64,000 bases of DNA. Source: Conchocele bisecta (taxonomy: Eukaryota > Mollusca > Bivalvia > Lucinida > Thyasiridae). Where the stretch lies: NCBI GenBank assembly GCA_029237695.1, contig CM055271.1, positions 38,312,462 through 38,376,461 on the forward strand. The letters run 5' to 3'. The stretch's first letter is position 1. Every line of letters begins with the position of its first letter. The position numbers and the translations under genes are program-made. Under the pieces are notes generated by a model. The model was not told where the DNA came from, made no database searches, and saw only the letters and a program-made list of their open reading frames with translations. Below, piece by piece: positions 6,801-27,762 of this stretch.

Positions 6801-6882
6801 CCATACCCGGTCGCAGTAGATGTGACGTGGATACATACATTTGAACTGTTTACATACTTAGTGGCGCTGTTTTTTTTCTCAG

Positions 6883-7050
6883 GATGCAGTCATGACATTG
6901 CTAACGGTCACGTGATTAATGGATCATATTTGTTTGGCTACCACATATCATGTGACCGAGGATACGAGTTCACGCTCCAAGGCACGGTGACTGGGACGTT
7001 TAATTGTTATGACGGTGTTTGGGGTGCACCTAAGCCGGACTGCCAACCAA
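6883..7050 (+). CDS. Sushi/CCP domain exon (exon 5)
   Basis: This third complete sushi module is phase 1 at both ends. The acceptor is a long T-tract ending TTTCTCAG at 6882, and the donor is CCAA|GTAAGTG at 7051. It reads GCSHDIANGHVINGSYLFG, then YHISCDRGYEFTL, then FNCYDGVWGAPKPDCQP. This is close to the textbook sushi layout: C, then ang.ng.y..g...sC..Gy.l, then C.dG.W..p.P.C. It lies 1.8 kb after exon 4. The next candidate exon of the same gene is 22 kb away, across the virus-like block and many repeats. Confidence 0.9.
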
Positions 7051-8990: not shown

Positions 8991-9113
8991 ACAGACCACA
9001 TGTTGTTCTTATACAGTAAACGCCCATCGTTTTATTTCTTATATTTACATTACATTTTCGGATAGTTTTAAAAAATGTAACCAAATACGGCGTTTCCATT
9101 ATGAATTTAAGGA

Positions 9114-9226
9114 CAGTAGTAGTATATGGGAGTCAAAATGATACCACCTCTCTCTGTAAGCCCCCTGCTACGCGTGGTGCCTCCCATCAGGAGGTGGTAT
9201 AATGTTGGACTCCCATATACTACTTG
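9114..9226. repeat. Hairpin-forming inverted repeat
   Basis: GTAGTATATGGGAGTC with ATACCACCTC is matched by GAGGTGGTAT with GACTCCCATATACTAC. Together they make an imperfect foldback of about 110 bases. It marks the left border of the GC-richer virus-like region. Confidence 0.7.
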
Positions 9227-9356
9227 TTTTTTCCCCACTGTTCGCGCGGTATGGATGAGAAGAGTGGGAAATGTTTTTCAGCAACCACGAGACCATATAC
9301 TTCCTCGACTGGATGAGAAGTTATCAATGAGACGAGATGTCACCACCTCTCACAAC

Positions 9357-9701
9357 ATGTTAGAGATAAGCCCTCCCTATGTTATACTCAGTATATGTAA
9401 TCACACAATGGTTCTAGCTAATTGTGCGTGGTTGAAGACAGGTAGTCACGAGAGATGTCATCGTACCGGTATTTTCGAGTATTGCAAGCATCACCGGGCA
9501 TGTATGAGAAGAGAGTCCGTTTCGCCTCGCCCATGTCGGCATTGCGGGGTAGGGACCAGATCCGAGTCACTGAAATGTCCACCATGCGGTGGCACTCGCG
9601 CTACTCATCGACTGGTTAGCAAGGAATTACGTGCTCGCAAGTATTATCGTTTAGTAATAATTCAAATCAGAAAGTCAGTTAGAAACATAGAACCGATCTG
9701 A
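9357..9701 (+). CDS. Cysteine-rich zinc-binding-type ORF, possibly virus-like element derived
   Basis: The open frame extends left to 9126, but the part that looks coding runs from the ATG at 9357 (114 residues). Its centre has repeated metal-ligand pairs: CHRTGIFEYCKHH, then PRPCRHCGVGTRSESLKCPPCGG. That is C-x8-C-x2-H, then C-x2-C and C-x2-C, as in treble-clef or zinc-ribbon modules. The C-terminal tail is basic. Small zinc-ribbon proteins are common in virus-like and giant-virus elements. Its position between the foldback at 9114 and the capsid block suggests it belongs to that element, but this is inference. The reaction or partner is unknown. A truncated host zinc-finger ORF is an alternative. 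Confidence 0.45.
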   Translation: MLEISPPYVILSICNHTMVLANCAWLKTGSHERCHRTGIFEYCKHHRACMRRESVSPRPCRHCGVGTRSESLKCPPCGGTRATHRLVSKELRARKYYRLVIIQIRKSVRNIEPI

Positions 9702-10299: not shown

Positions 10300-10525
10300 C
10301 TTTTAATTTTAAACCACATGCGACAAAGTATCGTGTCTCTCTATATATATATGACAATAACTCGCTGGTGTATTACACAGCTTTAAGCGATATGTAACCA
10401 CGGCGGTGTACTTGTTTCATGTATTGGTTTAATTTTAAACCACATGCTACAAAGTATCGAGTCGCTATATATATATGACGGAAACTCACTGGTGTGTGTT
10501 ACACATCTTTAGCGGTATGGTGGCC
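10300..10525 (+). repeat. Tandem duplication of about 126 bp
   Basis: The unit with AATTTTAAACCACATG, ACAAAGTATCG, TATATATATATGAC and CTCGCTGGTGTGT occurs twice, starting near 10302 and 10428. The surrounding 9705-10560 interval is otherwise AT-rich and without a recognisable gene. Confidence 0.7.
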
Positions 10526-10816
10526 AGTGGGTGACATAATCACGGGAGACTAACGGGGACCCGAACAAGTTTTATGTTCTGTATGCCGGCGCCGACGGAA
10601 CTGCTGGACTGTATGGTGGATGGATCTCCTGCCGCTGCAGACACGCGAATAAGCATATCACGTCCCGAGAATTTTTCTCTCGTCGGCCCTCCCTTCCATG
10701 ACGAGTTTGTTTACGTCTTCGTCCGCGTGAATTTGTGGTCGGGCCTGGGACCGGATCGCGCCCTTTAACTCCTGGTACCTGGCCATCTCTTCGGCGACCA
10801 GTTTGAACTCGCTATC

Positions 10817-11395
10817 TTATATATCGTTGTCGGCTATCGCTTTCGACACGATAACGTCGATACTGTTTTTCTTAGACCTCGCGAGAACCGCTATTCGGTC
10901 GTGTTTTCAACTCTTGGCCTCGAGCTTGCTGGCCACGAGTCTGCTCGCCATGCAAAGCAGGCATGCCCCTGCCGCGACCGCACTCAAGGTCACCGCGATC
11001 GGCGCGGCGACGACTGTTGACAATAAAAACACACTCCCCATCCCGCTCACAACGAAAGTTGAGGCTAGCGTGGTGTTCACCCCATCGACCACATTGACTG
11101 CCCGCCTATATTTCTTTGCATGACCCGTCCGCGTCTCTACCTTATGCTTGAGAATCTGTTGTATCTCGACGATCCTGGTCATCCTAAAGGATGAACCCCG
11201 CTCCTCGGCCCAAACTGCTATTACGGGTTTTGCAGCTCGCAATCGCTGTACGTGTACAAGCGCCGTAGCCGCCTCTGTGCGAGCCTGCGCTATCCTTCCC
11301 TCCTGTCGTCTCATTGTCGCTTCATCGTTGCTGGCTGCGCCCGCGACGGGAACATCCTGTTCTATGCTGTAACTACCTGTGCCGTATATGCTCAT
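10817..11395 (-). pseudogene. Two-helix membrane protein of the virus-like element, broken
   Basis: The frame from 11395 runs 162 residues to a TGA at 10907. It then continues coherently past that stop to a TAA at 10817, and further coding-like sequence goes on to about 10570 with more breaks. The middle part, from VVDGVNTTLASTFVVSGMG onward, has two adjacent hydrophobic stretches (about residues 100-150) rich in Gly, Ala and Val. Alpha-helical charged segments flank them on both sides. I believe similar proteins accompany capsid genes in Polinton-like elements of invertebrates, but I cannot name a family. It is the most distal gene of the minus-strand cluster. Two in-frame stops make it a pseudogene unless they are sequencing errors. 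Confidence 0.55.
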
Positions 11396-11417
11396 GATTA
11401 ATATGTAAATATATATA

Positions 11418-12137
11418 TTATGTTTTATCGGTTATTTCGAGATCGATCGAAATCGGGTAATCGTTCTTTAACTCTCGCGCTTTATCATCTAAAATAGAGA
11501 TATTCAATTCGTGGATGTGACCATATTCCAAACGTTTCATCTCGGGGGTTGGAAAGTCTAAGGTCAGGGTCTCACCATGGAAACAGTCGCTGTCGTGCAC
11601 GACCTTAAGGAGAGTGCTGGGGGCTCCGTCTAATGTGTTGTACGATGTGTTCAGCTGACCCAGGTGCACCCTGAGAGTTTTCGTGAAGGCGAACCCCACT
11701 GGATCGTTGCCGTCGTGCTCGCCAGGGTCAAACCATCCCTTATTGTCAGAAGGGTATGTTGTTTTAAATCCTAACTGTAAGGTCAACGTCGGTGTGACCC
11801 TTATACGGGTGGCGCGCTCGACGGTCAATGTTGCGAGTCCTGTGGCTTTCGAGATTGCGAGACTGGCTCTACCATCAAGCTCCGACGCTACAAACGCTTG
11901 GAGATCTCTGAAACCCCAAAGAACAGGAGGTAGTTTGACACCTACCGGTGGTCCGTTCTCCATGTAACCGAACCATTCGTACTCCCCCACGTTTCGCCAG
12001 CCGACCGTGAACGTGATTGATCTGAGGCCGGCCCGCCGTTTCCCGCAGCAGTTGTCGATCGAATTCTGAAGTACACAATCCTCCCTTTGAACATTGGTGA
12101 GCATAGCAAACATGCTAATATATTTCATGGATACCAA
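11418..12137 (-). CDS. Penton-like minor capsid protein candidate of virus-like element
   Basis: This intact 239-residue frame has no stops. A better start than the first Met may be residue 12 (MLTNVQRED). The sequence looks beta-rich, with alternating hydrophobic strands such as RIRVTPTLTLQLGFK and HIHELNISILDDKARELKND near the C-terminus. A VKLPPVLWGFRDLQAFV segment precedes. Beta-rich proteins of about 200-250 residues with an LPPG-like motif, an LGF motif and a closing I.I.DD.G strand pair are typical penton/minor-capsid companions in Polinton and adintovirus-type elements. It overlaps the upstream ORF by 23 bases and is followed 22 bases later by the next minus-strand gene, so one transcription unit is likely. 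The assignment rests on pattern and neighbourhood, not on an alignment. Confidence 0.55.
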   Translation of the reverse strand: MVSMKYISMFAMLTNVQREDCVLQNSIDNCCGKRRAGLRSITFTVGWRNVGEYEWFGYMENGPPVGVKLPPVLWGFRDLQAFVASELDGRASLAISKATGLATLTVERATRIRVTPTLTLQLGFKTTYPSDNKGWFDPGEHDGNDPVGFAFTKTLRVHLGQLNTSYNTLDGAPSTLLKVVHDSDCFHGETLTLDFPTPEMKRLEYGHIHELNISILDDKARELKNDYPISIDLEITDKT

Positions 12138-12555
12138 TGCGCTTGGCTTTAATAATGATGCAAAGTACCTGGTCGACGGGGTCTACGCCGCTAAGGCATG
12201 CGCTCCCCGGCTGGTGCACCCCACTATCCAAGTTCGCTGCGGAACATGCTTTCAAACCAACTTCCTCGACATCTTTGAACAATATCGGCTGCCCAAGATT
12301 ACTACCATGGAGGCCGTGAACGGGTGGAAAGCAACACCGATGTATTTTTGGCAGAATCAGCGCGGTGAATAGTAGGAGATTGACGATCGCGACGATTAAA
12401 GCCCAAGCATTCTCGGCGAGCCATCCGGCCGTTTTAGATAATATAGATAGCAAGAAGGAGATGAGACCCCCAATCAACCCAGGCAGCGCGGCAGCCGCCT
12501 TTCCTGCTAATTTAGCCAGGAGACTGGCGAGGGCTTTTGGTTGCTTTTTACCCAC
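12115..12555 (-). CDS. Small amphipathic/hydrophobic protein (pX/pVI-like candidate), probably frameshifted tail
   Basis: Residues 1-15 are basic (MGKKQPKALASLLAKLAG). Residues 15-65 are a nearly unbroken hydrophobic run including ALPGLIGGLISFLLSILSK and AWALIVAIVNLLLF. This fits the small membrane-active virion peptides found beside capsid genes in Polinton, adintovirus and adenovirus-like elements. The remaining 75 residues are ordinary and Cys-rich and may be out of the ancestral frame. The start is clear because the Lys-rich N-terminus begins at the first Met. It lies between the coiled-coil gene and the penton-like gene. Confidence 0.5.
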   Translation of the reverse strand: MGKKQPKALASLLAKLAGKAAAALPGLIGGLISFLLSILSKTAGWLAENAWALIVAIVNLLLFTALILPKIHRCCFPPVHGLHGSNLGQPILFKDVEEVGLKACSAANLDSGVHQPGSACLSGVDPVDQVLCIIIKAKRIGIHEIY

Positions 12556-12661
12556 TCCGGTGCGGGTGCTGGCGCTGGTGCAGCCGCCGCACCACCACCA
12601 CCACCCGTGATAGCTAGAACTAGGGTCGATATAGTCATGCAGAGAGCTGTGAGGATGCTGA

Positions 12662-13279
12662 CTATTGTGACGCCCTGCTCTCTGTCAGAGTGCGAAGACG
12701 CTCACCAAGTGTCGTGTCCTCGTGCAGGACCCCCGAGATTGTTTCGTGGATCCGACTTATTTGCGCACGGAGCGCCTCACGTATGGTCGAGGCAGCCTCC
12801 AATCGAGCTTCTCTTTCATCTCGCAACGACCGCAGTCGTTCGGTGATCCGCTCGATAGATTCTCTAGCGTCACGGGCTTCCTCCAGTTTTCTTTCTTCTA
12901 GCGCGATATGTTCATCCAGCGCCGTAAGTTTGGAGAGGTTAAGGACCAGTTCGCCCCGGACTGTTTGCATAGCCTCATCGAGGCCAGGTAGTTCGCGAAG
13001 GCTCAACGGTGGGTGATCCATCACGCTGAGTATCTCGTTTTCGCTAATCTCCATTGTGCGAATAGCGTCGGTGTCTGCCCGAGGGACCTCGCTGATCTCG
13101 GCCGTTGCTATCGCGGCGGCCGTCTTCGCCATTGTTTCGTCGGTAGACTGTAGGGTGTGTACAGCACAGGCCGGCATAATTGTTTTACCAGGCTTCCAAT
13201 CTGGGAAGACTAGTTCGCCCCTTATGATGTGACCATTTCCGGCAATGGTGCTCAGCGCTGGGGGTTTTCCGGTCCTCAT
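12662..13279 (-). CDS. Coiled-coil protein of the virus-like element
   Basis: This 205-residue frame is free of stops. Residues 1-45 include a GNGHIIRGELVFPDW segment with beta character. Residues 95-205 are strongly charged and helical, with heptad-like Leu/Ile spacing (LSKLTALDEHIALEERKLEE and ERITERLRSLRDEREARLEA), which predicts a long coiled coil. It is the first gene of the minus-strand cluster, with its start about 280 bases from the divergent capsid start. A structural or scaffolding role is plausible from position only. I do not recognise a named family. Confidence 0.5.
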   Translation of the reverse strand: MRTGKPPALSTIAGNGHIIRGELVFPDWKPGKTIMPACAVHTLQSTDETMAKTAAAIATAEISEVPRADTDAIRTMEISENEILSVMDHPPLSLRELPGLDEAMQTVRGELVLNLSKLTALDEHIALEERKLEEARDARESIERITERLRSLRDEREARLEAASTIREALRAQISRIHETISGVLHEDTTLGERLRTLTESRASQ

Positions 13280-13556
13280 CTTGACGATTGGGACATTTTA
13301 TGCTTTTTGTCGTAACCTACCGGACAGATCCAATTCGAACTCGGAGTAGTCGCGGCCGACAGATGGGACCGCACCTTTTTCAGCCAAATTGTTGTAATAC
13401 CCATCTACAGATGCCGGCTGGCATCTCTATGAAGGGCATTTCGTCATCGTCGGCGCTCTTATAATCGAGGTAATCATCTCGGTTGCCCGTAGTGAGATCG
13501 AATTCACCGATGTATTGAACAAAAAACCACACGCGTTTAATAGTTTCATCGAAACT

Positions 13557-14811
13557 ATGTCTTCGAGTCAATACGGGCGCAAATTCAATGCATACCGCAG
13601 ACTGCGGGAGCCCCTCGGTGCGAAAGGTGTGAGACAGAGCGTCGTTATTACGAACAACCCATCGACGATCGACCAGAATCAGCAGCTCTTGGCCAGCTTC
13701 CCCAACCTCGAAGTTAACAACGTCATTGTGCCGGGGACTGTTCGCCTCGCTTTCACTATTTCGCTGACGTCGACAGACGCGGCCGAACCGCCGTTCAGAA
13801 GCTGGGTCGCGCCATCGTCAAGAAGACCATGATAAAGATTTCTGGTAATGAGGTGATGTCGATCGACGACAGCGACGTCTACCATTGTTACCAAGACCTG
13901 TGAAAGACGGCACAAGAGCGCGAAAATGCGGTATATCAGGGTATTGACACCAGCCGAAATAGGAACGTAACCAGACTTAGAATCGGGTGTGGTGATAAGG
14001 TAGATAACGTCGTGAGAGACAACGCGATCGCGGCCGCTTACGACAACTGCTTCTACATCCCGCTCGACTTTAAGTTGCTGGAGAGCCACATGCCCTACTA
14101 TCATAACGCTTTGGCCGACCGCCTCGAATACGAACTAACGTTCAACGTCTACGACCGAGTTCTCATAGCCACTGACATGGCATCGACGTATTCGATCGAC
14201 AATATTTCGCTGGAGAACGACATGGTCACGATGCCCGAACTCGCGCGATTGACCAGAACCCAGTACGCCGGGCGAGTTGCCATCCTTTACGACCGAGTTC
14301 TTCGCCATTGCAAGATGACGAAAGACAAAAGCGAGACATTGTGGAATATTAATGTTAACCTCCCCGCCCGCTCGATGAAAGGCATACTGGGGTGCTGTTC
14401 GAGGAGGCTCGGTTCGCGCTTGGGGCTAGAAAAACCGACAAATTGTATAACCCCAAACTCACAAAGGTCGAGGTGACGATTGAGGGAGTCCCCAATCTGT
14501 TCTACAGCCAGGGCATTCGCGCACTCCAGCAGTGGAACGAAGTCAAAAAACAGTTTGCTACCGGCTCTAAGCTCGCCCCTGAGGTTGCCGCGGTTTCCAA
14601 AGACCTGCAGCTCTCGGACGTCTCCCTCGCAGAGTTCCTGACTTCCAAGTACGCGCTATGGCTAGACATGCGAACCAGCGACGACGACCAACGGCACGGT
14701 AGTGGACGCCAAGTTGAGAACGCCAGCGAGGGTGTGACGATCCAGATAACCAAAGAGGCGGACGGCAACGGTGCATTAAACGTGTACATATATATGGGCC
14801 GCGCTCTGTGA
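13557..14811 (+). pseudogene. Major-capsid-like gene of a Polinton/adintovirus-type element, frameshifted
   Basis: The coding signal runs through all three plus frames in turn. Frame one is 13557 to about 13780, and the next is about 13780 to 14390. That second part has an in-frame TGA near 13900 where the context wants a Trp codon. The third is about 14390 to 14811. Recognisable stretches include NNPSTIDQNQQLLASFPNLE and VPGTVRLAF in the first part, HNALADRLEYELTFNVYDRV in the second and VEVTIEGVPNLFYSQGIRAL and NASEGVTIQI in the third. Length, beta-rich character and neighbours fit a double-jelly-roll capsid protein. Two frameshifts and one stop disable it here. The frame also ends inside the element's terminal repeat. 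An upstream in-frame ATG at 13515 exists, but the conserved-looking sequence starts at 13557. Confidence 0.6.
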
Positions 14812-14830
14812 AAACCGGCCTTAATGACAA
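14787..14830 (-). repeat. Terminal motif of the virus-like element (right end)
   Basis: Read on the minus strand it is TTGTCATTAAGGCCGG, then TTTTCACAGAG and CGCGGC...CATATATATG. The same sequence, with few differences, stands on the plus strand at 26649-26690 directly before the ATPase gene. It is therefore a good candidate for the element's terminal inverted repeat. Confidence 0.75.
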
Positions 14831-14879
14831 CGTCATGAAAGCCATGAAAATGACGTCGCAAAGTTACGCTTGAAACCAC

Positions 14880-16200
14880 AGGTGACGGGAAAAAAAATCA
14901 CATGACGGTGTATATATATATAGATATTAAAGGTTAGCAACGAACTTTACGAAGTGAAAGACGTGGCTTTTAAAAATCTGTTAATATGATAGAAATTGGT
15001 ACCTTACTATTCCGTTTGATGTTTAATATTTGTGAAAATACACCAGTCCGGGTCTCGGTGCCGTTTACTGGGTGTAAGAGTACCTTGCGCCTGTGGTACA
15101 GCACTAGATTTGTAACCTAGTCCTCCCCGGAAAAAAGTCGTCGTTATCGAGGGTCCCTGAATTGTTGCTCAAATTTCCCATTATCGAGTATTTGTAGACG
15201 TTCAACACGTCGACATTTATAATGTTACATTTAAACCGATTTTGTATACGCCCACAGTGAAGTACACATCCTGGTATGCTCGCTATGCTTCTTACTTGTG
15301 GACAAAATCCGATTGTTATCTTTCTTCATCAGAAAATTCAATCGACCTATTTTACAACGGCCATTTTTGTTGGAGAGAGATGCTGCGGCCTGATTGGCTA
15401 AAAATCGCGAAAGGAAAATATTACAAATGTATGATTTAAAATTTATTTTTTTAAGTTACAGTGTCTACTGATATTTAAGTTTATTTTTAATAAATTTTAT
15501 TAATCATTTTAATACTAAATAGTATTTAATAATACACCAAGTTACAGTTTACCATATATGGTCATTGTGGTTGTTGTTGTAGATTTAAGAGTAAACAAAC
15601 CGGGGTCTCATTGACTGCAAGTGCATGCTAAAATGCGCTATTTTCATATTGCTACCTAACTACTGTATATTTTTGCATTTTTTACTTTAAATTATTTTCA
15701 CAATTTGAAATCTACATTCCTTTGTGCTAAACAAAACAGAGAATTACACCGTGTACAGTACTACGTAAGTTTATCGGATAACTTTCCAGGTTGTGTCAAC
15801 GCATGGTTACTTGAATAGTTCTGTGGGTGGGGTATTGATCTGGGAACGTTTCTGTCACAACAGTCGCCGAGCCATAATAATTTGATTTGTGTATCGATTT
15901 GATAAATATACTGTTTTGGGGTATTTTATACAGCGGATCTAACATGTTTGGTGATTTTTATGGTATTTATTAATAGACTACTAACTTTATAAGTAACTAC
16001 GCTAAGCCGAGTTTCTTATGCAATCAGTACATCATAATGAGTTTAATAGTAAATATCATGTTAAGTAATCAGTTATTTAAGATCCTATTTATTGTATAAT
16101 ATAATCATAGAAACATACTGAAGCTGTACTGATCAATTAACTGAATGTTTTCTATAGCCTAGTTTCTTACACTAACTAGTACATATTTGACCTGTATGGA
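14880..16200. other. AT-rich stretch without genes
   Basis: I see no gene in this interval. At 15128-15175 a short sequence (AAAAAGTCGTCGTTATCGAG...GTCCCTGA) is the inverse of 23338-23372, marking a small dispersed repeat. Confidence 0.5.
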
Positions 16201-16204
16201 AAGG

Positions 16205-16555
16205 GGGTTGGGGGAGGAGAATCTCAAAATCCGAACTGAATATTTACAGAAAAATTAGTACCATAACCTGGTCTGGTGCCAGATCATCACCATACTAGAA
16301 TCACTAGAATCACTTAGCCACACTCCCTAAAAGTAATAGGATTAGTAATAATCTTTCTATCTTTATAATAGGTGACATCTCTGAAGCAACAATAAAGCCG
16401 AAAATAAACTGTACCGGAGGGCCAAATTAGGGAGATTCTGGCAAGGATGAATACCATCGTTAAATTTACCCTATGCATGCTCTTGACAAGCCGCCCACTC
16501 CAGACAACAAATTGTCGATACAATGCGTTCAGAAATATGATAGCAATCAATTTTT
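16205..16555. repeat. Dispersed repeat (ACTTGGCCCCCTCCC family)
   Basis: This shares the order AATCCGAACTGAATATTTACA, TGGTGCCAGATC, AATCACTTAGCC and AGTAATAGGATTAGTAATAA with copies at 19500-19705, 24930-25160, 49655-49805 and 51780-51960. The copies at 19600 and 49680 are nearly identical, so the family was active fairly recently. Confidence 0.65.
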
Positions 16556-16867
16556 ATTACTCCCCTTTCATCACCTGCTGTACAATGTAACATTCAAATG
16601 TATCCGAGATTCAGCTTGGCTTTTATTTAGAAGACACCACTAGATGTTAATTTTCCTATACCCTGTGACTAACAAACATTGCCGATCCAGATAAGGCACA
16701 TGGACCCTTTCAACACTAAATAACTGGAACAGATTTTGATATGTTAATTTACCGATCTAATTGTCACTAAATGATTTTCAGACTAGTCCATTATGACAAG
16801 AATTCCGCCACGGAACCGGTGTCGCGCCTGCCGAGGCATTTGACCGTGAACATTAGTAAATAGATTA

Positions 16868-17200
16868 CCTTGACCTTCAAAATTTGGATGTGGGGGTGTG
16901 TGCGTAATGAAGCATCATCCCTAGACAAACTTGATGTGAAATATTATCAATGTCTGGCAAGGGGTTAAAGAGATATTGTGAAAAAACAATAACTTTAACG
17001 CATTTCTGTTACAAAACCGGTGAACATTACCAGGAAATAAATGACCTTGACCTTCAAAATTTGGATGTGGGGGTGTGCGTAATGAAGCATCATCCCTAGA
17101 CAAACATTGATGTGAAATATTATCAATGTCTGGCAAGGGGTTAAAGAGATATTGTGAAAAATAAATAACTTCAACGCATTTGCCTTACAAAAAAACCGGA
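16868..17200 (+). repeat. Tandem duplication of about 177 bp
   Basis: The unit CCTTGACCTTCAAAATTTGG ... GGCAAGGGGTTAAAGAGATA ... TTAACGCATTT occurs twice in succession. A TCGCGCCTCTGCTAAAGCAG hairpin-like motif follows at 17230-17262. Confidence 0.8.
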
Positions 17201-17689
17201 CGACGACGGAAAAAGCGCCCACTATAGTCGCGCCTCTGCTAAAGCAGGCGCGACAAAAAGGGGTTGTTTTTTTCTTCTCCAAAACATATGAAAATTACTT
17301 GTAAAAAGTGCATATATATCCTGATGAGTTGACTGGTCGCAAGCCGGCTCATCTGCATTTACACTGTTTGCAAATTCCACTATAGAGGTACATGTATGTT
17401 ATGTTGAAAGGATTATGCTTGTTACAATAACATTGCTATGACCTGGTGATAAACTTCAACCAATTATATCAACTGCCATCCATCACATTGCACACTGGCC
17501 TCCTAAATTGACAATATGTAACACAGTCCTGCAGAGGACCATCTGAGCAGATGGGTATGAAGCTAGAGCTTCGTTGTAATTACATAATTAATATAGCATG
17601 AAGTGCATGTACGGTACATACCATATTTATTCTCGTAAACATACATGGGATGTGCAACGTTTGAAATAAAAAACAATTCAGCAGAGCTG

Positions 17690-17890
17690 CAGATAAGCTG
17701 CGTATTTGCGTAAACAACCAATTAAAATTGCCAAAAACCCAATTGAAATCAGAAGTAGCAAGTATCAAAAAGCAATAACAAATTTGTGGTACCTTTATCA
17801 TGCTACAGAAAACAATAAAGACCACAAATATAGCATATTTTTCTTACTTTCCATGAAAACACATCTTGGTATTTCATTAGTAATGAAATG
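17690..17890. repeat. Dispersed repeat (AAAACCCAATTG family)
   Basis: The segment GCTGCAGATAAGCTGCGTAT ... CACATCTTGGTATTTC recurs at 31868-32110, and its other end (ATACCCAATTGCTT ... TCCTTATCTGGA) is at 29210-29335 and 32164-32246. The pairing with ATGAAATGCCAAGACATG gives a local palindrome. Confidence 0.65.
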
Positions 17891-18109
17891 CCAAGACATG
17901 TTTTCATTTTGTGTTTCCTTCGACCTCAAATCATGTTCTCAGACACACCCTCTGAATTGCGAGACAATCACCTTCACTACAGCCTACTTCCAGAAATTAA
18001 TTTGCCTATATCTGTACCATATTTTAATCCCGATTGGCTTTGTTTGTTTTATGAAAAATTGTGTGTGAAATGTAAGGAAATGTTTATTTAACCAGATGAC
18101 CTGATTATC

Positions 18110-18240
18110 TTGAAATAATGCCCTCGTGATTGGGTCCTACTGCTAAATAAACTTGGTTCGCTAAGCTCACTCGTTTATTTAGCGTAAGGACACACTCACT
18201 CACGCATTATTTCACAATAATCAGTTTACCTGGCTAAATA
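18110..18240. mobile_element. Small foldback element
   Basis: CTGATTATCTTGAAATAATG faces CATTATTTCACAATAATCAG, and a central pair TAAATAAAC/GTTTATTTA surrounds CGCTAAGC. Confidence 0.65.
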
Positions 18241-18664
18241 AACGATATGTGTTGCATACTAGAATTTGTAAATATTGAACAGTAATGATTTGCTGGTGGT
18301 TGATCTCAGTACAAGCTGTGAATAAAAGCCTGGGTTACTGTCTGTTTTGTGTAAACCTGTTTATTTCTGAGGGCTACATGAACACTGAAAAAAAGTAGTT
18401 TTTTTTGTTTATATTTCTTTTCAGCAAATTTTCAGCAAGAGTCAACCATTGACTTTACCATACAAAAAAAATGCTTAATACCCTCCCGTAATTTAACATT
18501 GGCTAAAATGTTGAATATCGGAAAAAAAACCTCATGTAAAAGAATGCTCATTTATTAATTTTGCCAAATATTAATAATCGTGAAATAATATTATTTTTTC
18601 AATATATAGGGTAGGTGAAATAAATTGTTTGGTTTTGTCAAACAGATAGTACCGGTAGTACCCT

Positions 18665-19216
18665 TCATCTGGGTGGTGCAAATTTTCGATGTAACCACTT
18701 GGTCAAGTTGCATTCGTCACAACAAATCCGGTCCATATCAACATTATTAACATGGTAACATTTAGCACACAAGCTGATGTCTAGTTACTTCTGGTACTGT
18801 GTGGTCATTTTTGGAGCTGAAACATGAACCTCTTTCCTGTGTTCCATCTTCTTTTTGATATTCATAGAATCCATTATATCTCTGGTGAATTGCTCGAGGA
18901 AGACAAGCACTGGTGTATTTTTCAATATGACATGAAACAAGTCAGTTAGTACACAAACTTTCACCACAATATTATCCATGCACCATTGAACATTATCATT
19001 TATATTGTCATGGTTGAATCTGGTATATGTATTCAAGTTTAATATCACTGAAGAGAGAAGTGAAACATTGATAGATGTATGCTGCTTAGCATCACTTTCT
19101 AAAGTGTCCAACTCATGATATTCAACCACTATTTCTCTTACTGCCTCATCTACTTCTCATCAGTTGGCACATCGCTGTCTTGTTCATCATTTACTTTACA
19201 TGTGTCACTTTCTGAC
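18665..19216 (-). pseudogene. Unrecognised gene with PHD-like zinc pattern, broken
   Basis: On the minus strand an acceptor-like ATATTTTCAG precedes 19216. The following frame gives SESDTCKVNDEQDSDVP, shifts by one base near 19155, and then runs to a TAA at 18785. The main part contains HTSINVSLLSSVILNLNTYT and NDNVQWCMDNIVVKVCVLTD. In the same frame beyond the TAA comes SLCAKCYHVNNVDMDRICCD followed by ECNLTKWLHRKF, then TGA at 18665. C-x2-C, then CCDEC-x4-W-x-H, is the front half of a PHD finger. One frameshift and one internal stop argue for a pseudogene or a broken transposon gene. I do not recognise the N-terminal part. A relation to the plus-strand PHD-type gene 3 kb to the right is possible but untested. 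Confidence 0.45.
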
Positions 19217-19499
19217 CTGAAAATATAATAATTAAAAGTGTATTATTATAACAGTAGATTTCTGAGTATTTGCCAAGGTCATGTTAATGGCAGCATGAGT
19301 ATGTTCCAAATGCTTACATGTATCAAGTGTGTGCAAATAATGAAGCAATCATCATGTAATATTAAAGCTGGGGTCCCATATGCCAGGTTATAATATAGCG
19401 ATACAGATATTTCTGTATATTGAATATTCTGTAGATATGTTTGTTTGGTCATTTATGGCCAGATCAATGGGTTTAGTACTAAATCCCATATATTACCTG

Positions 19500-19945
19500 T
19501 ACATGTACAAATGGGGGAAAATCCCTAAATCGGAACTGAATATTTACAATAAAAATTCTATATATTCAGCCCTGAAATCAAAATAATCCTGAACTGATGC
19601 CAGGTCCTCGCCACACCAGAATCACTTGGCCCCCTCCCAAAAGCAGTAGGATCAGTAATAATCTTACTAATTTTATAATGGGCAATAACCCAATTCAACT
19701 CCCAGGTAATTCTGTAGATATGACATTTTCTGGCAAAACAAACATTCATTCACCATTGCCCCACATATTGATTGGCATTATTATACATTTTATATCAGAT
19801 GTAAATTTCCACACTGATATCAGGGGCGATAACTGTGTTTCCTTAAAATGCTAACAGACATTACAGTATTTACTATTTATTCTCTGTATGTACTTTATAA
19901 TCTGTCGAAAATATGATTTTTTCAAGCGACACATTTAATTAGTAT
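19500..19945. repeat. Two dispersed repeats end to end
   Basis: The left part (to 19705) is the ACTTGGCCCCCTCCC family and nearly matches 49655-49805, including GGGCAATAACCCAATTCAAC. The right part (from about 19718) is the inverse portion of the GCCCACTCAGTAGGCACA family. It carries TTTTCTGGCAAAACAAACAT and GATATCAGGGGCGATAACTG and matches 39345-39580 and 48600-48790. Confidence 0.7.
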
Positions 19946-19961
19946 AAATAATTAAACTAGA

Positions 19962-20575
19962 AATGTGGCCTGTCGGCACACGAATGCCCCCGCTGGCAGC
20001 CAAATAAAACGAGGCATATTTGATTATAAGCCATTTACCCGAGCGTTAAGGTTTTGAACGCACCTTGACCCTGGGCTTAGTGGGGGCGGGACGAATGTGG
20101 ATTTGTCACAGGGCGGTAGAGGACCATTGTAGCAATGCGTGTGTGAAATGTGAAGCAGATCCGAGCAAGGAAACACAAATTATAAGCCATTTAACTGAAT
20201 GTTAAGGTTTCAAACGCACCAAGTCTGTGATTAGCGGGGGCAGGACGAATGTGGATTTGTCACAGGGCGGTAGAGGACCATTGGAGCAATGCGTGTGTGA
20301 AAGTTAGTGTAGGATTGAGAAACGCGCACGTAGATTTGTCCCAAAGTGGCAAGTAAACAATTAAAGTGGAAAAGGTGAAGGTCAAAGGTGAAGGTCGAAG
20401 TAATGGGTGGTGGAGTGTGTAAGGCATGTTCATATGTATCATGTGTATACATATTTAAGCGATTGGCAAAAGTATTGAGAAGTTATTGTAGGATTGAGAA
20501 ACGTGCACGTAGATTTGTCCCAAAGTGCTAAGTAAACATTTAAAAACTTAACAGCCCATCGTTTTATTATTTACG
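19962..20575 (-). mobile_element. Helitron-like non-autonomous element (candidate)
   Basis: Read on the minus strand, the end at 19962-19996 is GGCATTCGTGTGCCGACAGG followed by CCACATTTCTAG and T. That is a short hairpin (GGCA/TGCC) followed by CTAG before a T, the signature of a Helitron 3' end. The interior has a duplicated block of about 155 bases (GGACGAATGTGGATTTGTCA, 20090-20300) and a duplicated GAGAAACGCGCACGTAGATT. The same terminal sequence stands at 27719-27757. Confidence 0.45.
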
Positions 20576-20585
20576 ACAATTTAAA

Positions 20586-21070
20586 GTTGGGGTCTCATAT
20601 GTTCGGCTTTCATCGGTATAACTACATATGAATAACAAGGCTTATAACTTTGGTCGGACACGGCCTCGTATCTTAACAAAATAAAATGTTTAAAATTGTA
20701 ATTGCCTATGCATTCTATGTATTTCTGCAGGATAATGATAATTCTTAAATGAACATATGAACTTTCCACTACAATATTGACATTAGAGCCCTAAACACAT
20801 TATTTCAGTTGTTATGATACGAGGTAGTGTCAGACTTAGGATAATCGGCTGTAATTTGATGTTCTTTGCATGATTATGTTCCAACTATGCTATTTCAGCA
20901 AGATAACAATACTTCTCAAATGAAAATGTGTATTTTCCGCCAAAATATTTAAATTATCGTTAATAAAATCGTGAAATTTGTTATGATACGAGGTCGTGTC
21001 CGACCAAAGTTATGAGCCTTGTTTTTCATACATGTATGTAGTTATACCGATGAAAGCTGAAATACGCCAA
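20586..21070. mobile_element. Long foldback element
   Basis: Arms of about 85 bases at 20586-20672 and 20984-21070 are inverted (TTATAACTTTGGTCGGACAC facing GTGTCCGACCAAAGTTATGA). About 310 bases of unrelated sequence lie between them. No protein is encoded. Confidence 0.8.
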
Positions 21071-21099
21071 ATGCCTGTGCCATATGTAAGGCACTCCAT

Positions 21100-21330
21100 T
21101 TTCTTTATAGGAATTAAATAAGTGTATAATAGTGTAACTATTCCACCAGTTTGAAAATGACGAGTGTCGTCATACATAATACAGACATAATCATTTGGTA
21201 ATCTTTACTAACAGTGACGCGTGTTTGTATAATGTATATGGTTATTTTGCTATGCCAATGAGGCAGGAAATTTCAAAAAGTTGATTTGCACAACTATTAG
21301 CCATATGTTATGCATGATTCGCTTTGTTTT
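21100..21330 (+). repeat. Dispersed repeat (GCCCACTCAGTAGGCACA family)
   Basis: TATAGGAATTAAATAAGTGT, CTATTCCACCAGTTTG and a CATATGCAAATGAGGCA-like end match copies at 39660-39800, 47840-48060 and 48060-48290. Confidence 0.65.
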
Positions 21331-21537
21331 ATAAAGTATGTGTTTTACTATTTCATCTGTCTTTTATATTTTCTGTATCCGTGAGCTGTGATTTTCTGAG
21401 CTATTAATAGTTATGTACTCAGAACAAGATGTGATGTACCCGCTACTAATCCACAATGAAGGTTACATCACTATATAGAGATAGATAGCCGTGCCAGACT
21501 GCGAAAGAAGAACAAATGTTTTCTTTGTGTGTGAGTC

Positions 21538-21580
21538 ACACTGTGTGTGTGTGTGGTGGTGGAATATGTGTGTGTCATCA
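21538..21580 (+). repeat. GT-rich microsatellite
   Basis: A short run of TGTGTGTGTGTG interrupted by GGTGGTGG, then TGTGTGTG. Confidence 0.7.
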
Positions 21581-22362
21581 GTAAATTAAATAAAAGGGCG
21601 TTTCCTTATGTAAATGTTGCTTTTATGATCTGGGGGCTGGGAGATGGGCGGTAGTTATATTCAGATAACTGCACCAATGATACAATAATCTTTCCATGCT
21701 TACCGAATCGTAAACACAACCAGTCAACACAGCCTCAGTCACAGCAGGCGATGCCTGTAGTGCAGGTCAGTGCGGCCTTCTTCCCTTCTTTTCCCGCTCA
21801 TGAAAGAAGTGTTTAACAGAAAATGGTTTTCCGCTGACCGCCGACATAAATGTTATGACCAGTCACGGCAGCAAACGCTTCCAATTATCGTAAGTTCATT
21901 ATCGTCGAACTGCCAGAAATCGGTCACTGCCTGTTTCCGGTCGGCCCCGGAGATTTAAAAAAAAATGCTTATTTTTTACGACAACACTGGTTGCGCGCGC
22001 ACCACATTGTTTACGCTGACTACCGAGCTGTCAAAGTTGTTTGCTGCATGAAAATAGGAGATTAGAAAGGTAATAACTGTTATAAAATCATGCCAAGTCC
22101 TAATTTAATGCATTTTCACTATAACCGAAAGTTCCCATTCATAAAATACCAAAAAAACCCTCAAAATAACAAGTTTATCAAATTTTTCATTCACCGTCTG
22201 CTAAAATGGATTATTTTCCAGGGCCCACGCACTTGCCAAGCGGTGTCAATCTACAGGTGTTGGCCAAAAGTGAGAGACAATTTATGCAGTTGAGTTATCA
22301 AATTATTTTTTTTCACCGATGATTTAGGCATATGTGTGAATGAGATATGCTTTTATGCATAG

Positions 22363-22548
22363 GTAAGAGGCACAGTCCGGACAAACAAAAGAGGCCATAC
22401 ATCATTTTAGTCACTTGGGGTGAATGTGAAAAATGCAAACGGTGGGTCCATTTGGCATTTTGTACACCAGTGAGAGTAATTAGGCGTGGGGACACATTTT
22501 TGTGCCCACACTGTGATGCTGCCATCGCTCCAACCCAGGACCAAGTAC
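22363..22548 (+). CDS. PHD-finger-type exon (gene 2, first recognised exon)
   Basis: The exon encodes RPYIILVTWGECEKCKRWVH, then LAFCTPVRVIRRGDTF and LCPHCDAA. The order C-x2-C-x3-W-x-H-x3-C, about 14 residues, then C-x2-C matches the second half of a PHD finger, which binds zinc and often reads histone tails. The first Cys pair is not in this exon and may lie upstream. The acceptor is TTATGCATAG ending at 22362 and the best donor is TAC|GTGAGT after 22548, giving phase 1. The next two exons continue in matching phase. It sits inside the large intron of gene 1 on the same strand, so it is either a nested gene or evidence that the sushi exons belong to two genes. Confidence 0.6.
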
Positions 22549-22723
22549 GTGAGTATACATTGTAAATAAGTTAAATCAGTTATTTGAAGTTAATTTGAGT
22601 TACATTTACAGTAATTTTACTTTTCCAAAGACTTAATAAAGTTTCATTGTGAATGTGTGTTATTTTGGGCATATCCTGTAGATGTCGCAAAATTGACTGA
22701 AAACCGGTTGTGAATTTCTGCAG

Positions 22724-22776
22724 TATTGGAAAGTGGGTCACCGGTGTTCACAGATGATTACTGGACATATTTCAAG
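22724..22776 (+). CDS. Gene 2, second exon
   Basis: A short exon has acceptor AATTTCTGCAG and donor TTCAAG|GTAATC. It enters in phase 1 as the previous donor requires and reads LESGSPVFTDDYWTYFK, ending in phase 0. The sequence has no known motif. The phase match on both sides is the evidence that it is real. Confidence 0.5.
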
Positions 22777-23182
22777 GTAATCTTTGTTAAAGTTACAGTT
22801 TTATAACAATGAAATGTTGTATTATAAGTGTGTATAACATTAATTTCATGACATGTCTTTTAATTAAGAATTATGTTGATAAACATGCTAGGTGACCGAT
22901 TTCTGGCAGTTCCAGGCTACATTTTAACTTGTGATGTTCCCGCGATCTAGCAACATATACGGCTCACTTGATTTACAATTTCAAACTGCCGGTTTACTCC
23001 GTGGGTCGGGCGCGAGTGTTACCGATACATATTAATTTTAAAAATGAAAAATTGTATTTATTTTTTACTTGGTTTCAGCCAAATACATTTTTATATTGCA
23101 TCTTTGTTACAATTTATTTCTAGAACGAACTCTAATACGCAATCCGCTACGAACAACACAACACTTGCTTACTTGATTTAAG

Positions 23183-23314
23183 GACATTCCACCTCAAATC
23201 GTGGATGTCAGTAAAACAAGTGTACCATACACTGCGATTCGGTCGCTCATCAACAGCAGCCAACCAGAACACGACTTACAATTCACTGCGGATTGGTCTC
23301 CATGCCAGCAGTAA
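23183..23314 (+). CDS. Gene 2, last exon
   Basis: After a TTGATTTAAG acceptor this exon starts in phase 0, as the previous donor requires. It reads DIPPQIVDVSKTSVPYTAIR, then SLINSSQPEHDLQFTADWSP and CQQ before a TAA at 23312. A GTAAGC donor overlaps the stop, so the exon could splice on instead. No domain is recognised. The upstream PHD-type exon suggests a chromatin or transposon-derived protein. Confidence 0.5.
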   Translation, partial: DIPPQIVDVSKTSVPYTAIRSLINSSQPEHDLQFTADWSPCQQ

Positions 23315-23763
23315 GCATATTCTATTTTTGTAAATCAGGGCAAATCAGGGACCGTCGATAACGACGACTTTTTTTAGGCCTGATGGGTTGACAAAACTTA
23401 CCTGTATCGCAAGCACAGGACATTTTTTAACACGGTAAACGGCTCTGTGACGCTGATTAATGTATTTTTTAACAATAATCAACGTAAATTGTTACAGTCA
23501 GGTGACGATTTCTATAATTTCAAAGGATTTTAATAGCCTGTTGATTTACCTGTTGCGCACCTTGTATCTTATACAAATAACAACAGACTATCAGATTAGT
23601 TGTTCCCATCACCTGTGCTTGAAACCAACGTCACGTCGGATTTTGACACTTGAAATAGTTGCGTCATATTTGCAATAAGTTGACGTTGTCCTATATATAA
23701 CCGTACGCTTTACTATGTGTGGCTCACAAACATTTTAATGCTGGATACGCGTAGCAGAATGTT

Positions 23764-23911
23764 ACAGTTGTTTCCATAGTGGTTCAGACAGTTGTTTCCA
23801 TAGTGGTTCAGACAGTTGTTTACATAGTGGTTCAGACAGTTGTTTCCATAGTGGTTCAGACAGTTGTTTCCATAGTGGTTCAGACAGTTGTTCCATAGTG
23901 GTTCAGACAGT
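23764..23911 (+). repeat. 24-bp minisatellite
   Basis: About six copies of CAGTTGTTTCCATAGTGGTT plus CAGA, with few substitutions and one single-base deletion. The open minus frame across it (repeating NHYGNNCL) is an artefact of the repeat. Confidence 0.9.
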
Positions 23912-24829
23912 TGTCTGTTGTTTCGGTTTCCTTCAAGGAAACACGTAGTGATTTTGTCGAATTTTGTTTCATATATGGACGACCTTTGAAACCAAATAAC
24001 CATACAACCGGTAATTTTTAGATAACACCATCACATAATCAGTATTATGTAACAAATAGAACTGGGCACAGGGCTTAATTCGTTTAATTTACTGTTTCGC
24101 CTGTCGAATGTTTCAAACGTCAACATAAAAATACGATTTGGAATTTTTCAGAAAAATAAGCGTATCACAGATGTATAATTATGGTAGTGTCAAAATATAC
24201 GCTGTTCCTGGCATATCGCATCATGGTGACGCTGGGCCAAACATGTTTTAGTATTTAGTGTGTTGGTATTGTGTCACATGCATATCTACTGCGACACAAT
24301 AATCATGGTTATATCAGATTATTGTAATACAAAATTGTATCCACCAAGGACTTAGCCTACTGATTTCTATATGTTATACCGCTTACGTGTTCGGTGTCAC
24401 GTAATATTTAGCGACTTTCAAAAATATCGCATTGAATCAGCCGTATGATTGCCGTTTGATAACAATGTAAATATTCTTTAAAATGACCACTTGTAAATAT
24501 GGTTATGTTTAGTAATTTTACTAGTATATTTGCAATCATTGCAGGCACTGATGCACAGGTCTCCAACATTTACACATTTAAGAAGTCCTACTTTGCCAGA
24601 TTGTTGTTACTTTTTCTTTCATTGTACTACATTGTACTAAATAATGCACGTCTGTGTGCTTTGTTTGTTATCAAAGGGCCGTTCTAGTCGGAGGTGTGTA
24701 AATAATATAAAACAAAAGCACATGCACACCTTAAACGCGTCTAAACTCAAATGAGCCGCTTCGAACAATAGTCGCAGGGTGTGGAGCGTCATTTCAACAA
24801 AATCAATGTTGTGATCGGGACAAATTTAG

Positions 24830-25245
24830 TCTGTTTGTTTGTTTGTTTATTGGTGTGTAACGGCCTATCAACAGCTAAGGTCATGTAAGGCCGGGCAAAC
24901 GGGTTCGATCCCATTTTGACCTGTTGCATTGGGGGGAAAATCCGAAAATCAGAACGGAATATTTACATCGAGAACAAATATATTCAGCCCTGAAATTAGA
25001 ATATCCTAACCTGGTGATAGGTCCATACCACACCAAAGTCACTTGGCCCCTTCCCCATAAACTAGGATTACGAATATCGTAATACTCACATAAAGGGTAT
25101 AACCAGATTCAACTGTCACATACAAAATGTCAAAGACGTATGTGAGGGCCAAACCAGGTCTCCAATCGGGATTCCGGTAAGACTGAACCCCGATCGTTAT
25201 TTTACCCATCGCGTGCTCCCACCTGCCACCCACAAATTTAGTGTG
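24830..25245. repeat. Dispersed composite repeat
   Basis: GTTTGTTTATTGGTGTGTAA, AACAGCTAAGGTCATGTAAG and a GGGTTCGATCCC box open this repeat, which then runs into the ACTTGGCCCCTTCCC family. The same order is at 51700-51960. The segment GAGGGCCAAACCAGG...ACCCACAAA at 25143-25238 recurs at 50930-51025. Confidence 0.65.
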
Positions 25246-25311
25246 TAAATCACTGACTGTGTTATAGTGTGCAGTTATGCAAGATACATGTACGTACGCC
25301 ATGGTGCTTTT

Positions 25312-25600
25312 CAGGGGTGGATCCAGGATTTCAGGTTAGGGTGGGGCGGGGGCGGGACTTCTTAATTGAAATTGTTTACTATACTTTCGAACTAGCACCG
25401 TTTGTTCATCGACCCAGTGGAGCTAGGGAGACTGCTAGGTGGGTCCGGCGGTATGCCCTCCGGAATATGTTTGATATTTACACCCCATTTTGCTGCGTTA
25501 TGGCGCATTTTAGAGCAAAAATACCTTTACTCGCCAAATTATAGGGGTGGTGGGAGGGGGTGGGGGGGGGGGCGCCGGGGTTTCCCCTACGTGAATCCGA
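25312..25600. other. Repeat-like G-rich stretch
   Basis: It begins GGGGTGGATCCAGGATTTCA, a sequence that looks like a transposon end, and contains a G-tract at 25548-25580 that could form a quadruplex. No gene is seen from 23320 to 26640. Confidence 0.35.
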
Positions 25601-26648
25601 CATTGTTTTTAGCATGGCTGTTTCTTTGCTTACAGATGCGCTGAATGTACTTTTTCTGAAACACAACAAAACTAAATTGCACATTTCATTTTCAAATTAA
25701 TTATTCCCGTCGACAGAATATACTGCCGATATTTTTATCGGGACATGTAACAATTATACAACCATGTATGTTACATCTCCACATTTTCCCGGCAGTGGCG
25801 GTGGTGCCAGTCTGGAAAGTGTGGGTCAGTGCAGCATTTTCCCATATACCTTCTACCTGCTAGTACGGGGAATGAACAGTCGATTTTCAGTTTGTTTAAA
25901 AATGCCCGTGGGTGTCCGACTACCCTCTAGACCCCATCGGACGCTGAAGTCATTGATATGTGCAGCCATAGGCCTATCCAAATTCTGGTAATTCATTTCT
26001 ACATAAATAAAATGCATTTGTTTCAATCACCGATACGATGTGCATATAATTTACAATTTTCAACACCAGGAATGCCGTTTAGTTTTTGGTCTTTGGTGAC
26101 GTATTGCCTAAATCAATAAATGACGTCACAATTAACTGTAAATGACGCCAATTCTTAAATAAATACATTGTATCTTTCTGACGACACACGTATATCACTC
26201 TATTATGGCGATGGTGGCAAATTACGAAGCCACAGGTCGGCTAATTATAGATTTAAAATCGATAGTTGTGCGTGTGTTTTGTTCACTACATGTACATATC
26301 ATAGTTTTATTCTGATGAATGTTTGATAGTATACATACTAACACTTGTAGATACATTTAGTCAATTAGTGCAACTTATCAGCAAATACAGTTTACAGCAA
26401 GCACCGTCAATGAGTCTATGAACACTCATTTCTACAGTAGGCTGTTGAGTTGCATTGTACAAACGTCGCCGTTTCAATAACTTCAGTTTCTCGATGGCGT
26501 TACGTTTTTTTTTCGTGCGTGATTCACATGGTGCTACAAAAAGTGAGATAAAACAAAAACTATTAAACATAATTGCATTTTCTTTTCAGAATATTGTTTT
26601 TGAAAGGTGTCCGCATCAAAAAATGTAAACAAATGCAAATTGAAAATT

Positions 26649-26690
26649 TTGTCATTAAGGCCGGTTTTCACAGAGTGCGGCACATATATA
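26649..26690 (+). repeat. Terminal motif of the virus-like element (left end)
   Basis: TTGTCATTAAGGCCGG, then TTTTCACAGAG and TGCGGCACATATATA. It is the inverse of 14787-14830 and lies 28 bases before the ATPase start codon. Confidence 0.75.
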
Positions 26691-26718
26691 ATCACAGATG
26701 CGTAACTCAACATCGAAG

Positions 26719-27195
26719 ATGGCCGATACGTCTCAGCACTCTACTAAAAAACCTCTGGGTTTTACGAAGGATGCCCACTCTGCCATAATATGTGGGCGGA
26801 CAGAATGTGGAAAAACGGTTTTCATCCTAGACTTGCTCGAGGGCTCCTAACGCGATGCCTTTCGACACATTGTGATCCTGTGTCCCACTGTGCGGTACGA
26901 CAAGACTTATCAGCGGCGCCCGTGGATATGGACCGACCCTGAGGTATACGTCGTTGACCCCGGCGACAGGCTTCACGATTGGCTGCGTGGCTTCTACGAG
27001 ACTGTTCGGCCAAGGCGGCGATGACCAAAAAGAAGGACATGCTCTCCGAGCTCGCATTTTCTGGCCGCCATGCGGGGCAAAGCGTATGGATCTCCACTCA
27101 GAAGTACAACGCCGTCCGCAAGGACCTGCGAGAGCAAACGAAATGGGTCGCATTCTTCCACTGCAAATACCAAGACTCATTCGATGACTGTTTTC
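26719..27195 (+). pseudogene. FtsK/HerA-type packaging ATPase, truncated and broken
   Basis: The start ATG gives MADTSQHSTKKPLGFTKDAH, followed by a Walker A motif, GRTECGKT, about 30 residues in. There is a TAA at 26848, then about 55 more residues in the same frame. The signal then moves to another frame near 27010. That later frame carries SVWISTQKYNAVRKDLREQT, which fits the sensor region after Walker B in A32-like packaging ATPases of Polintons and large DNA viruses. The C-terminal part is missing, because the frame runs into the 170-bp tandem repeat at about 27205. One stop, one frameshift and truncation make it non-functional. It belongs with the capsid block at 9.1-14.8 kb by its shared terminal motif. 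Confidence 0.7.
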
Positions 27196-27204
27196 GAGAG
27201 AACG

Positions 27205-27762
27205 ACGTTATCTCATCCCTTGATATATTACTTCAATATTCCAATACATAATACTTGTGGACAAATACCACACACCCATGCCTCCCTTAGTATGACCTTG
27301 ACCATTTGACATTCACAACTTTGAACTTTTTATTCACATTAAGAACTTCACCGGAGTTTCTCAATTCTGTCATAACTTCTACATCCCTTGGTGGATTACT
27401 TTAATATTTCAATACATCATACTTGAGAACAAACGCCACACATACATGCTGCCCTTAATATGACTTTGGCCGTGTGACCTTCACAAAATCAAACTTGTTC
27501 ACACATTAATAAGTTCGCAGGAGTTACTCTTTTCCTGTCATAACTTCTATATCCCTTGATGGATTACTTTAATATTTCAATATATCATACTTGTGGACAA
27601 ATGCGACACATCCACACTGCCCTTAATATGACCTTGACCGTTTGACCTATATAAATGTGTTTGTGAATACTTATCACTTTGGTTAAATAACTTTGCCACA
27701 GTTTCTCCAATCTGCTACCGGCGGCATTCGTGTGCCGACAGGCTACATTTCTTGCTGTACTT
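27205..27762 (+). repeat. Tandem repeat of about 168 bp, array 2, with Helitron-like end
   Basis: Diverged copies of the unit seen at 8340-8990 (CGGAGTTTCTCAATTCTGTC, GGACAAATGCCACACATCC-like) are followed by GGCATTCGTGTGCCGACAGG and CTACATTTCTTG. That ending is the same as the Helitron-like end at 19962, with CTTG instead of CTAG. Confidence 0.7.

What the first reader, a model, noticed from the sequence alone, without database searches (positions are those of the whole stretch)
10560..14830. Compact virus-like capsid block in a host intron
Within 4.3 kb stand a capsid-like gene and, diverging from it, genes for a coiled-coil protein, a hydrophobic virion-type peptide, a beta-rich penton-like protein and a two-helix membrane protein. 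The neighbours are AT-rich, and this block is clearly richer in G+C. The set and sizes fit the structural module of Polinton/adintovirus-like elements. Polymerase, integrase and protease genes are not present in this block. Three of the minus-strand frames are still open while the capsid gene is broken, so decay may be recent or partly due to sequencing error.
Basis: partly seen in the sequence, partly recalled or inferred. Interest (0 to 1): 0.75.

Follow-up and report, generated by a model that had tools for sequence, protein, structure and literature searches.

The report
Broken copy of a Polinton-type endogenous virus
This stretch of animal DNA holds a decayed copy of a virus-like jumping element (a Polinton, also called Maverick), one of many in the same genome, that lost genes through deletions and was split when another element landed in its capsid gene; it is a well-documented example of a known kind.

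Summary
The core reading is right: the block is a decayed Polinton/Maverick copy. Its capsid gene has 406 homologues (best E 1.8e-63), and a model of one relative ranks double-jelly-roll-lineage capsids first. The penton-like gene has 150 scored places in the same 1.89-Gb genome. Five sister copies share one gene order; four carry polymerase-B and integrase homologues. Three of four tested have AGTAGT terminal repeats at both ends, one with a perfect 6-bp target duplication.

Details change. The element starts at 9118, not 10560. The 14787-14830 'boundary motif' is the terminal repeat of another, 11.9-kb element that landed in the 3' end of the capsid gene; the capsid tail and ATPase-like remnants resume at 26684-27211 and stop at a tandem repeat. 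Two of the four minus-strand 'genes' are partly artefacts of internal deletions. Structural rearrangements, not sequencing error alone, broke this copy.

Penton fold unconfirmed, protease not found, insert unclassified, intron untested. High-copy Mavericks are already tabulated in a clam. New member of a known kind.

The parts
9118..9308 (.). Left terminal repeat of the element, starting AGTAGTATAT; the first ~107 bp are also an imperfect inverted repeat
   Evidence: 85.7% over 189 bp to the end of sister copy 3 (L038), the only such end in the window
9126..9701 (+). Open frame (191 aa) over the terminal repeat and Cys-rich subterminal region; coding status unknown
   Evidence: Matches in 4 of 5 sister copies and at 9429-9569 to L001 (E 4e-7)
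10515..11193 (-). Remainder of the 200-aa two-transmembrane gene and 3' flank
   Evidence: blastn to sister copies, e.g. L035 823-1512
11192..11395 (-). First 68 residues of a ~170-aa beta-rich gene, fused in the window to the previous part by a ~390-bp deletion
11421..12137 (-). Penton-like gene, open
   Evidence: 150 scored places in the genome; 17 database homologues via an alignment; dN/dS 0.15-0.34 against sisters
12121..12369 (+). N-terminal remnant of a ~450-aa gene with a C-terminal hydrophobic stretch; most of it is deleted here
12361..12555 (-). Hydrophobic protein, residues 1-65 (the real part of the 146-aa frame)
   Evidence: dN/dS 0.24-0.60
12665..13279 (-). 205-aa protein, coiled-coil-like by eye, fast evolving
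   Evidence: homologue at the same place in 5 of 5 sister copies; dN/dS 0.48-0.71 from the window copy but 0.79-1.32 from L034
13557..14795 (+). Major capsid protein gene, broken: two frame changes, an in-frame stop, 3' end severed
14790..14795 (.). Left copy of the 6-bp target duplication of the insert; right copy at 26684-26689 (exact placement ambiguous in the TA run)
   Evidence: empty site in four sister capsid genes
14796..26683 (.). Inserted 11.9-kb element, inverted repeats 14796-14830 and 26649-26683, G+C 37.3%, no transposase found
26684..26747 (+). Severed tail of the capsid gene, with a further in-frame stop
   Evidence: E 1.6e-4 to P0001 residues 314-333
26704..27211 (+). Packaging-ATPase-like remnants (P-loop-like motif), frames broken
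   Evidence: 63% over 62 aa to L001, whose frame weakly matches Pox_A32 (E 0.0015, below cut-off); 5 of 5 sister copies have at least part next to the capsid gene
27214..27648 (.). ~168-bp tandem repeat that begins where the element ends

Best explanation
A dead, rearranged copy of a high-copy Polinton/Maverick family in a 1.89-Gb animal genome. Fuller members carry a type-B DNA polymerase, an rve integrase and a virion gene set (double-jelly-roll capsid, penton-like protein, ATPase-like protein, several small proteins), and end in AGTAGT inverted repeats. The window copy begins at 9118, lost ~390 bp and ~0.85-1.2 kb internally, received an 11.9-kb inverted-repeat element in the 3' end of its capsid gene, and lost everything beyond the ATPase, where a tandem repeat now begins. 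Shown: family, left end, deletions, insertion, truncation. Inferred: order of events; replication by the own polymerase, integration by the own integrase and virion formation in active members (from knowledge of Polintons); penton function; a role of the tandem repeat in the truncation.
For: Capsid homologues 406 of 727 candidates; 22 of 45 aligned sequences reach Pfam Capsid_N at E 0.1 or better, best 1.2e-4; fold match; 150 scored penton places; one gene order in 5 of 5 sister copies; polymerase B E 5.6e-10 in L034 and integrase E 9.4e-9 in L039 above cut-off, homologues of both in 4 of 5 copies; AGTAGT inverted repeats at both ends in 3 of 4 tested copies, 6-bp duplication CATGCG in one; insertion with empty site in four sisters; deletion junctions.
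Confidence: 0.94

Rival explanations
1. A compact capsid-only element, complete within 10560-14830 and bounded by the 14787-14830 motif.
For: G+C falls at 14830 and rises only near 10 kb; the motif is a real inverted-repeat end.
Against: The motif pairs with 26649-26690 and lies in the capsid coding region; capsid tail and ATPase follow beyond it. Sister copies extend to polymerase and integrase.
Confidence: 0.01
2. The penton-like gene of this copy, or the block, is kept by the host for a new use (domesticated).
For: The penton-like frame is open although the copy is dead; pairwise dN/dS 0.15-0.34.
Against: Pairwise values reflect selection in the family, not on this copy; 20 of 30 sister frames examined, drawn from the best-scoring, are open as well. 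The rest of the copy is broken. No expression data.
Confidence: 0.03
3. Most of the breakage is sequencing or assembly error in a nearly intact copy.
For: Small frame changes in the capsid gene would fit read errors; irregular tandem arrays lie at 58-63 kb.
Against: Two internal deletions, an 11.9-kb insert with target duplication and a truncation are structural events. DNA identity to the sister copies compared is about 71-91% by block.
Confidence: 0.02

Closest known systems
Polintons/Mavericks (PMC4028283, outline and section 3 part 1 read; PMC8097293, passages and section 7 read)
   Same: Double-jelly-roll capsid, penton-like gene, packaging-ATPase-like gene, type-B polymerase and integrase in sister copies; (AGT)2 ends, 6-bp duplication in one copy; 12.8-15.8 kb against 12.7-24.6 kb reported for intact vertebrate Mavericks
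   Different: Capsid and penton-like genes lie on opposite strands with three genes between them; in the vertebrate elements described the integrase, minor capsid, PW, major capsid and protease genes form one module. No protease recognised. The window copy is a fragment.
Adintoviruses (PMC11071296, passages and section 16 read)
   Same: Animal-associated; a hexon with penton, coiled-coil ('Cah') and hydrophobic membrane-active ('Macc') gene classes resembles this gene set
   Different: The defining features (PolB with OTU-like domain, recognisable reference hexon, integrase chromodomain) were not tested
Mavericks of the clam Mercenaria mercenaria (PMC8905726, passages read)
   Same: A table passage lists Maverick with 1.69, 7091 and 31,368,848, which I read as percent, copies and bases of a 1.86-Gb genome
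   Different: The species of the window is not known to me; no sequence comparison was made
Virophages such as mavirus
   Different: Host is an animal and the copies are TIR-ended genome residents; no helper-virus link was examined

Membership tests
Polinton/Maverick | Major capsid protein with double-jelly-roll fold | tested here: met
[quoted passage not shown]
   Met in sister copies: DNA_pol_B_2 E 5.6e-10 in L034; homologues in 4 of 5 copies. Absent from the window. Protein priming not tested.
Polinton/Maverick | Retroviral-type (rve) integrase | tested here: met
   Met in sister copies: rve E 9.4e-9 in L039 (above cut-off), 9.8e-7 in L034 (below); homologues in 4 of 5 copies, none in the window.
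[quoted passage not shown]
   AGTAGT inverted repeats at both ends in 3 of 4 tested copies; duplication 6 bp in one, 5 bp in one, none in one. Fifth copy not tested. The window keeps the left end only.
Polinton/Maverick | Single-jelly-roll penton protein | tested here: inconclusive
   Penton-like gene in 5 of 5 copies, but model pLDDT 32 and no credible PDB profile match.
Polinton/Maverick | FtsK/A32-type packaging ATPase | tested here: inconclusive
   P-loop-like remnants next to the capsid gene; relative matches Pox_A32 at E 0.0015, below cut-off; window piece FtsK E 0.13.
Polinton/Maverick | Adenovirus-like cysteine protease | tested here: inconclusive
   No Pfam match in ten sister frames scanned and no PDB match for two of them; not all frames were scanned.
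Adintovirus | Hexon recognisable by BLASTp from adintovirus references | not testable with these tools
   No adintovirus reference was at hand; the defining paper is not held.
Adintovirus | PolB with N-terminal OTU-like domain; integrase with C-terminal chromodomain | not tested
   No such match was listed for the polymerase and two integrase frames, but those frames may be incomplete; no targeted search was made.

The most novel reading that the evidence does not exclude
The family is a recently active, virus-like lineage still spreading in this animal, with an unusual virion-gene layout (capsid and penton-like genes on opposite strands with three unrecognised genes between them) and a penton type with no recognised relative among solved structures.
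Probability: 0.2. Interest if true: 0.5.

Novelty: new member of a known kind. Interest (0 to 1): 0.3.

Why it matters
It shows how a Polinton fossil can mislead: deletions fuse neighbouring genes into new-looking open frames, and a nested element supplies a false boundary. The sister copies give a shared gene order with several unrecognised virion-type genes, useful for annotating Polintons in invertebrates. The phenomenon itself, many Maverick copies in an animal genome, is known.

Tried and rejected
Pfam and PHROGs gave no convincing match for eight window frames. IMG/VR scans found no relative: penton, two capsid pieces (15, 16), capsid alignment (30), coiled-coil (57), two-helix frame (58), penton alignment (107). 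The capsid alignment found one locus in bacterial and archaeal genomes (L001). A single-sequence penton search found nothing at E 0.01 among 319 candidates; only the alignment of genome copies found 17 relatives among 7207 candidates. PDB sequence searches with capsid pieces and the capsid alignment found nothing relevant. The BFVD fold search with the weak capsid model gave mixed hits, 2 of 137 with E 0.001 or better, both uncharacterised viral proteins. L001 frames that I took for polymerase by eye were not confirmed by Pfam and found no match in the sister stretches.

Spliced-copy idea: the two internal gaps do not have GT-AG ends; the junctions share 2 bp and 0 bp with the sisters' flanks, which fits ordinary deletion (my reading). 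Ginger2 origin of the 11.9-kb insert: an AT-rich target fits passages of PMC2836005, but those elements make 4- or 5-bp duplications and here it is 6 bp; no transposase was found in 19 frames of 75 aa or more, 1 of 19 matching any Pfam family at E 0.01 (DUF7211, 0.0022). Left unclassified.

Papers seen: PMC4028283 outline and section 3 part 1; PMC11071296 passages and section 16; PMC8097293 passages and section 7; PMC2836005, PMC8905726 and PMC10294476 passages only. The adintovirus paper asked for is not held. Paper searches.

Full report
Observation. Between 10560 and 14830 the window has four long minus-strand frames and a plus-strand gene split over three frames. These exceed chance: the longest minus frame was reached in 3 of 500 dinucleotide shuffles, the fourth in 0 of 500, and the third-longest capsid frame in 0 of 500. 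G+C is 52.6% here against 37.5% at 28-40 kb.

The boundary motif. The capsid tail lies at 26684-26747, followed by ATPase-like remnants to 27211. Positions 14789-14830 pair in inverted orientation with 26649-26690, 95% over 42 bp. Four sister capsid genes run through this point without a break, and the window's two flanks share a 6-bp duplication, ATATAT. An 11.9-kb element with inverted repeats therefore inserted into the capsid gene. Its G+C of 37.3% explains why the block seemed to end at 14830. No transposase was found in 19 of its frames.

The family. The window lies in a genome of 1.89 Gb in 1196 contigs. The penton-like protein has 150 scored places there, its own included, from 12,537 first-look candidates; only the best candidates are scored, so neither number is a census. 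I fetched ten 10-kb stretches around five sister copies and four further out. The five share one order. In the penton direction it is: 172-aa frame (-), ATPase-like (-), capsid (-), coiled-coil-like (+), hydrophobic (+), a ~450-aa gene (-), penton-like (+), ~170-aa beta-rich (+), 200-aa two-transmembrane (+). A Cys-rich region (-) follows in four of the five. Further out are a polymerase B (E 5.6e-10, L034) and an integrase (E 9.4e-9, L039; 9.8e-7, L034); homologues of both are in four of the five copies and none is in the window.

Ends. I tested both ends in four copies: three have inverted repeats starting AGTAGTATAT at both ends; one of these has an exact 6-bp duplication, CATGCG, one a 5-bp match and one none (duplications read by me from the printed flanks). 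In the fourth the right end was seen but not the left; the fifth was not tested. From the coordinates the three are about 15.8, 12.8 and 14.7 kb long. (AGT)2 ends, 6-bp duplications and 12.7-24.6 kb are reported for intact vertebrate Mavericks (PMC8097293). The window copy starts at 9118 with the same end, 85.7% identical over 189 bp.

Which frames are genes. In 26 of 29 sister loci both halves of the window's 'two-helix' frame are found; in 25 of these they lie about 0.26-0.5 kb apart (L007 is the exception), because they belong to two genes. In 17 of 29 both halves of the 'hydrophobic' frame are found, in all 17 about 0.84-1.2 kb apart; the second half is antisense to the ~450-aa gene. The junctions look like plain deletions. 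Pairwise dN/dS: penton-like gene 0.15-0.34 in 10 comparisons; hydrophobic residues 1-65 0.24-0.60 in 6; capsid piece 0.20-0.77 in 8; coiled-coil 0.48-0.71 in 7 from the window but 0.79-1.32 in 6 from L034, so its coding status rests mainly on its conserved place. Control frames: the antisense half, taken from L034, 1.2-3.5 in 4 of 5 and 0.39 in the fifth; a frame antisense to the penton 0.28-0.67 in 6. Single values are therefore not decisive.

Penton-like protein. An alignment of 21 genome copies found 17 homologues among 7207 candidates, best E 2.2e-69. Of 30 sister frames examined, drawn from the best-scoring places and one neighbour, 20 are open from residue 9 or earlier to 237 or later. 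The fold could not be shown: single-sequence model pLDDT 32, best PDB profile match E 0.62 to an unrelated protein, none with the wider alignment. The name rests on size, composition and place. [quoted passage not shown] here three genes lie between, and it is on the other strand.

Outside relative. One contig in an archaeal MAG (L001, 4.6 kb, probably misbinned) carries a capsid 3' end, then the same ATPase-like and 125-aa frames. It revealed the jump to 26.7 kb.

Verdict. A rearranged fossil of a Polinton/Maverick family. How active members would work is inferred from the family: copying by their own polymerase, packaging into a double-jelly-roll capsid, integration by their integrase. The window copy has lost the polymerase and integrase genes and cannot do this. 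High-copy Mavericks are already tabulated in a clam genome (PMC8905726) and said to be present in all mollusc genomes analysed in PMC10294476. Hence new member of a known kind, interest 0.3. Open: penton fold, protease, identity of the 11.9-kb insert, recent activity, and whether the copy sits in an intron.

Noticed in passing
14796-26683: An 11.9-kb element with ~36-bp inverted repeats and a 6-bp target duplication but no recognisable transposase; its superfamily is unclear.
   Followed up: partly
8352-9015 and 27214-27648: The same ~167-bp tandem repeat family (82% alike) lies just outside both ends of the virus-like element; recombination between such arrays could have removed its right end.
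   Followed up: partly
40346-44289 (-): Decayed retroelement frames: aspartyl-protease-type (DUF1758, E 1.1e-9) and a weak rve match; BEL/Pao-like by eye.
   Followed up: no
54841-55359 (-): DDE_3 transposase fragment (E 1.3e-7), Tc1-like by eye.
   Followed up: no
58042-63600: A long irregular tandem array with units of about 63-65 bp and many indels; possibly assembled from noisy reads.
   Followed up: no
L041:8578-9276 and L045 from about 2830 on: Further family copies beside sister copies; the penton-like gene in L041 is only 63% identical, so there are several subfamilies.
   Followed up: partly
L001:1-4602: A contig filed under a Diapherotrites archaeon MAG carries Polinton-type capsid and ATPase-like frames; probably eukaryotic contamination of the bin.
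   Followed up: partly
6876-7046 (+): Weak Sushi (CCP) match, E 0.022, with similar Cys-rich stretches by eye at 4431-5056; a possible host gene near the element.
   Followed up: partly
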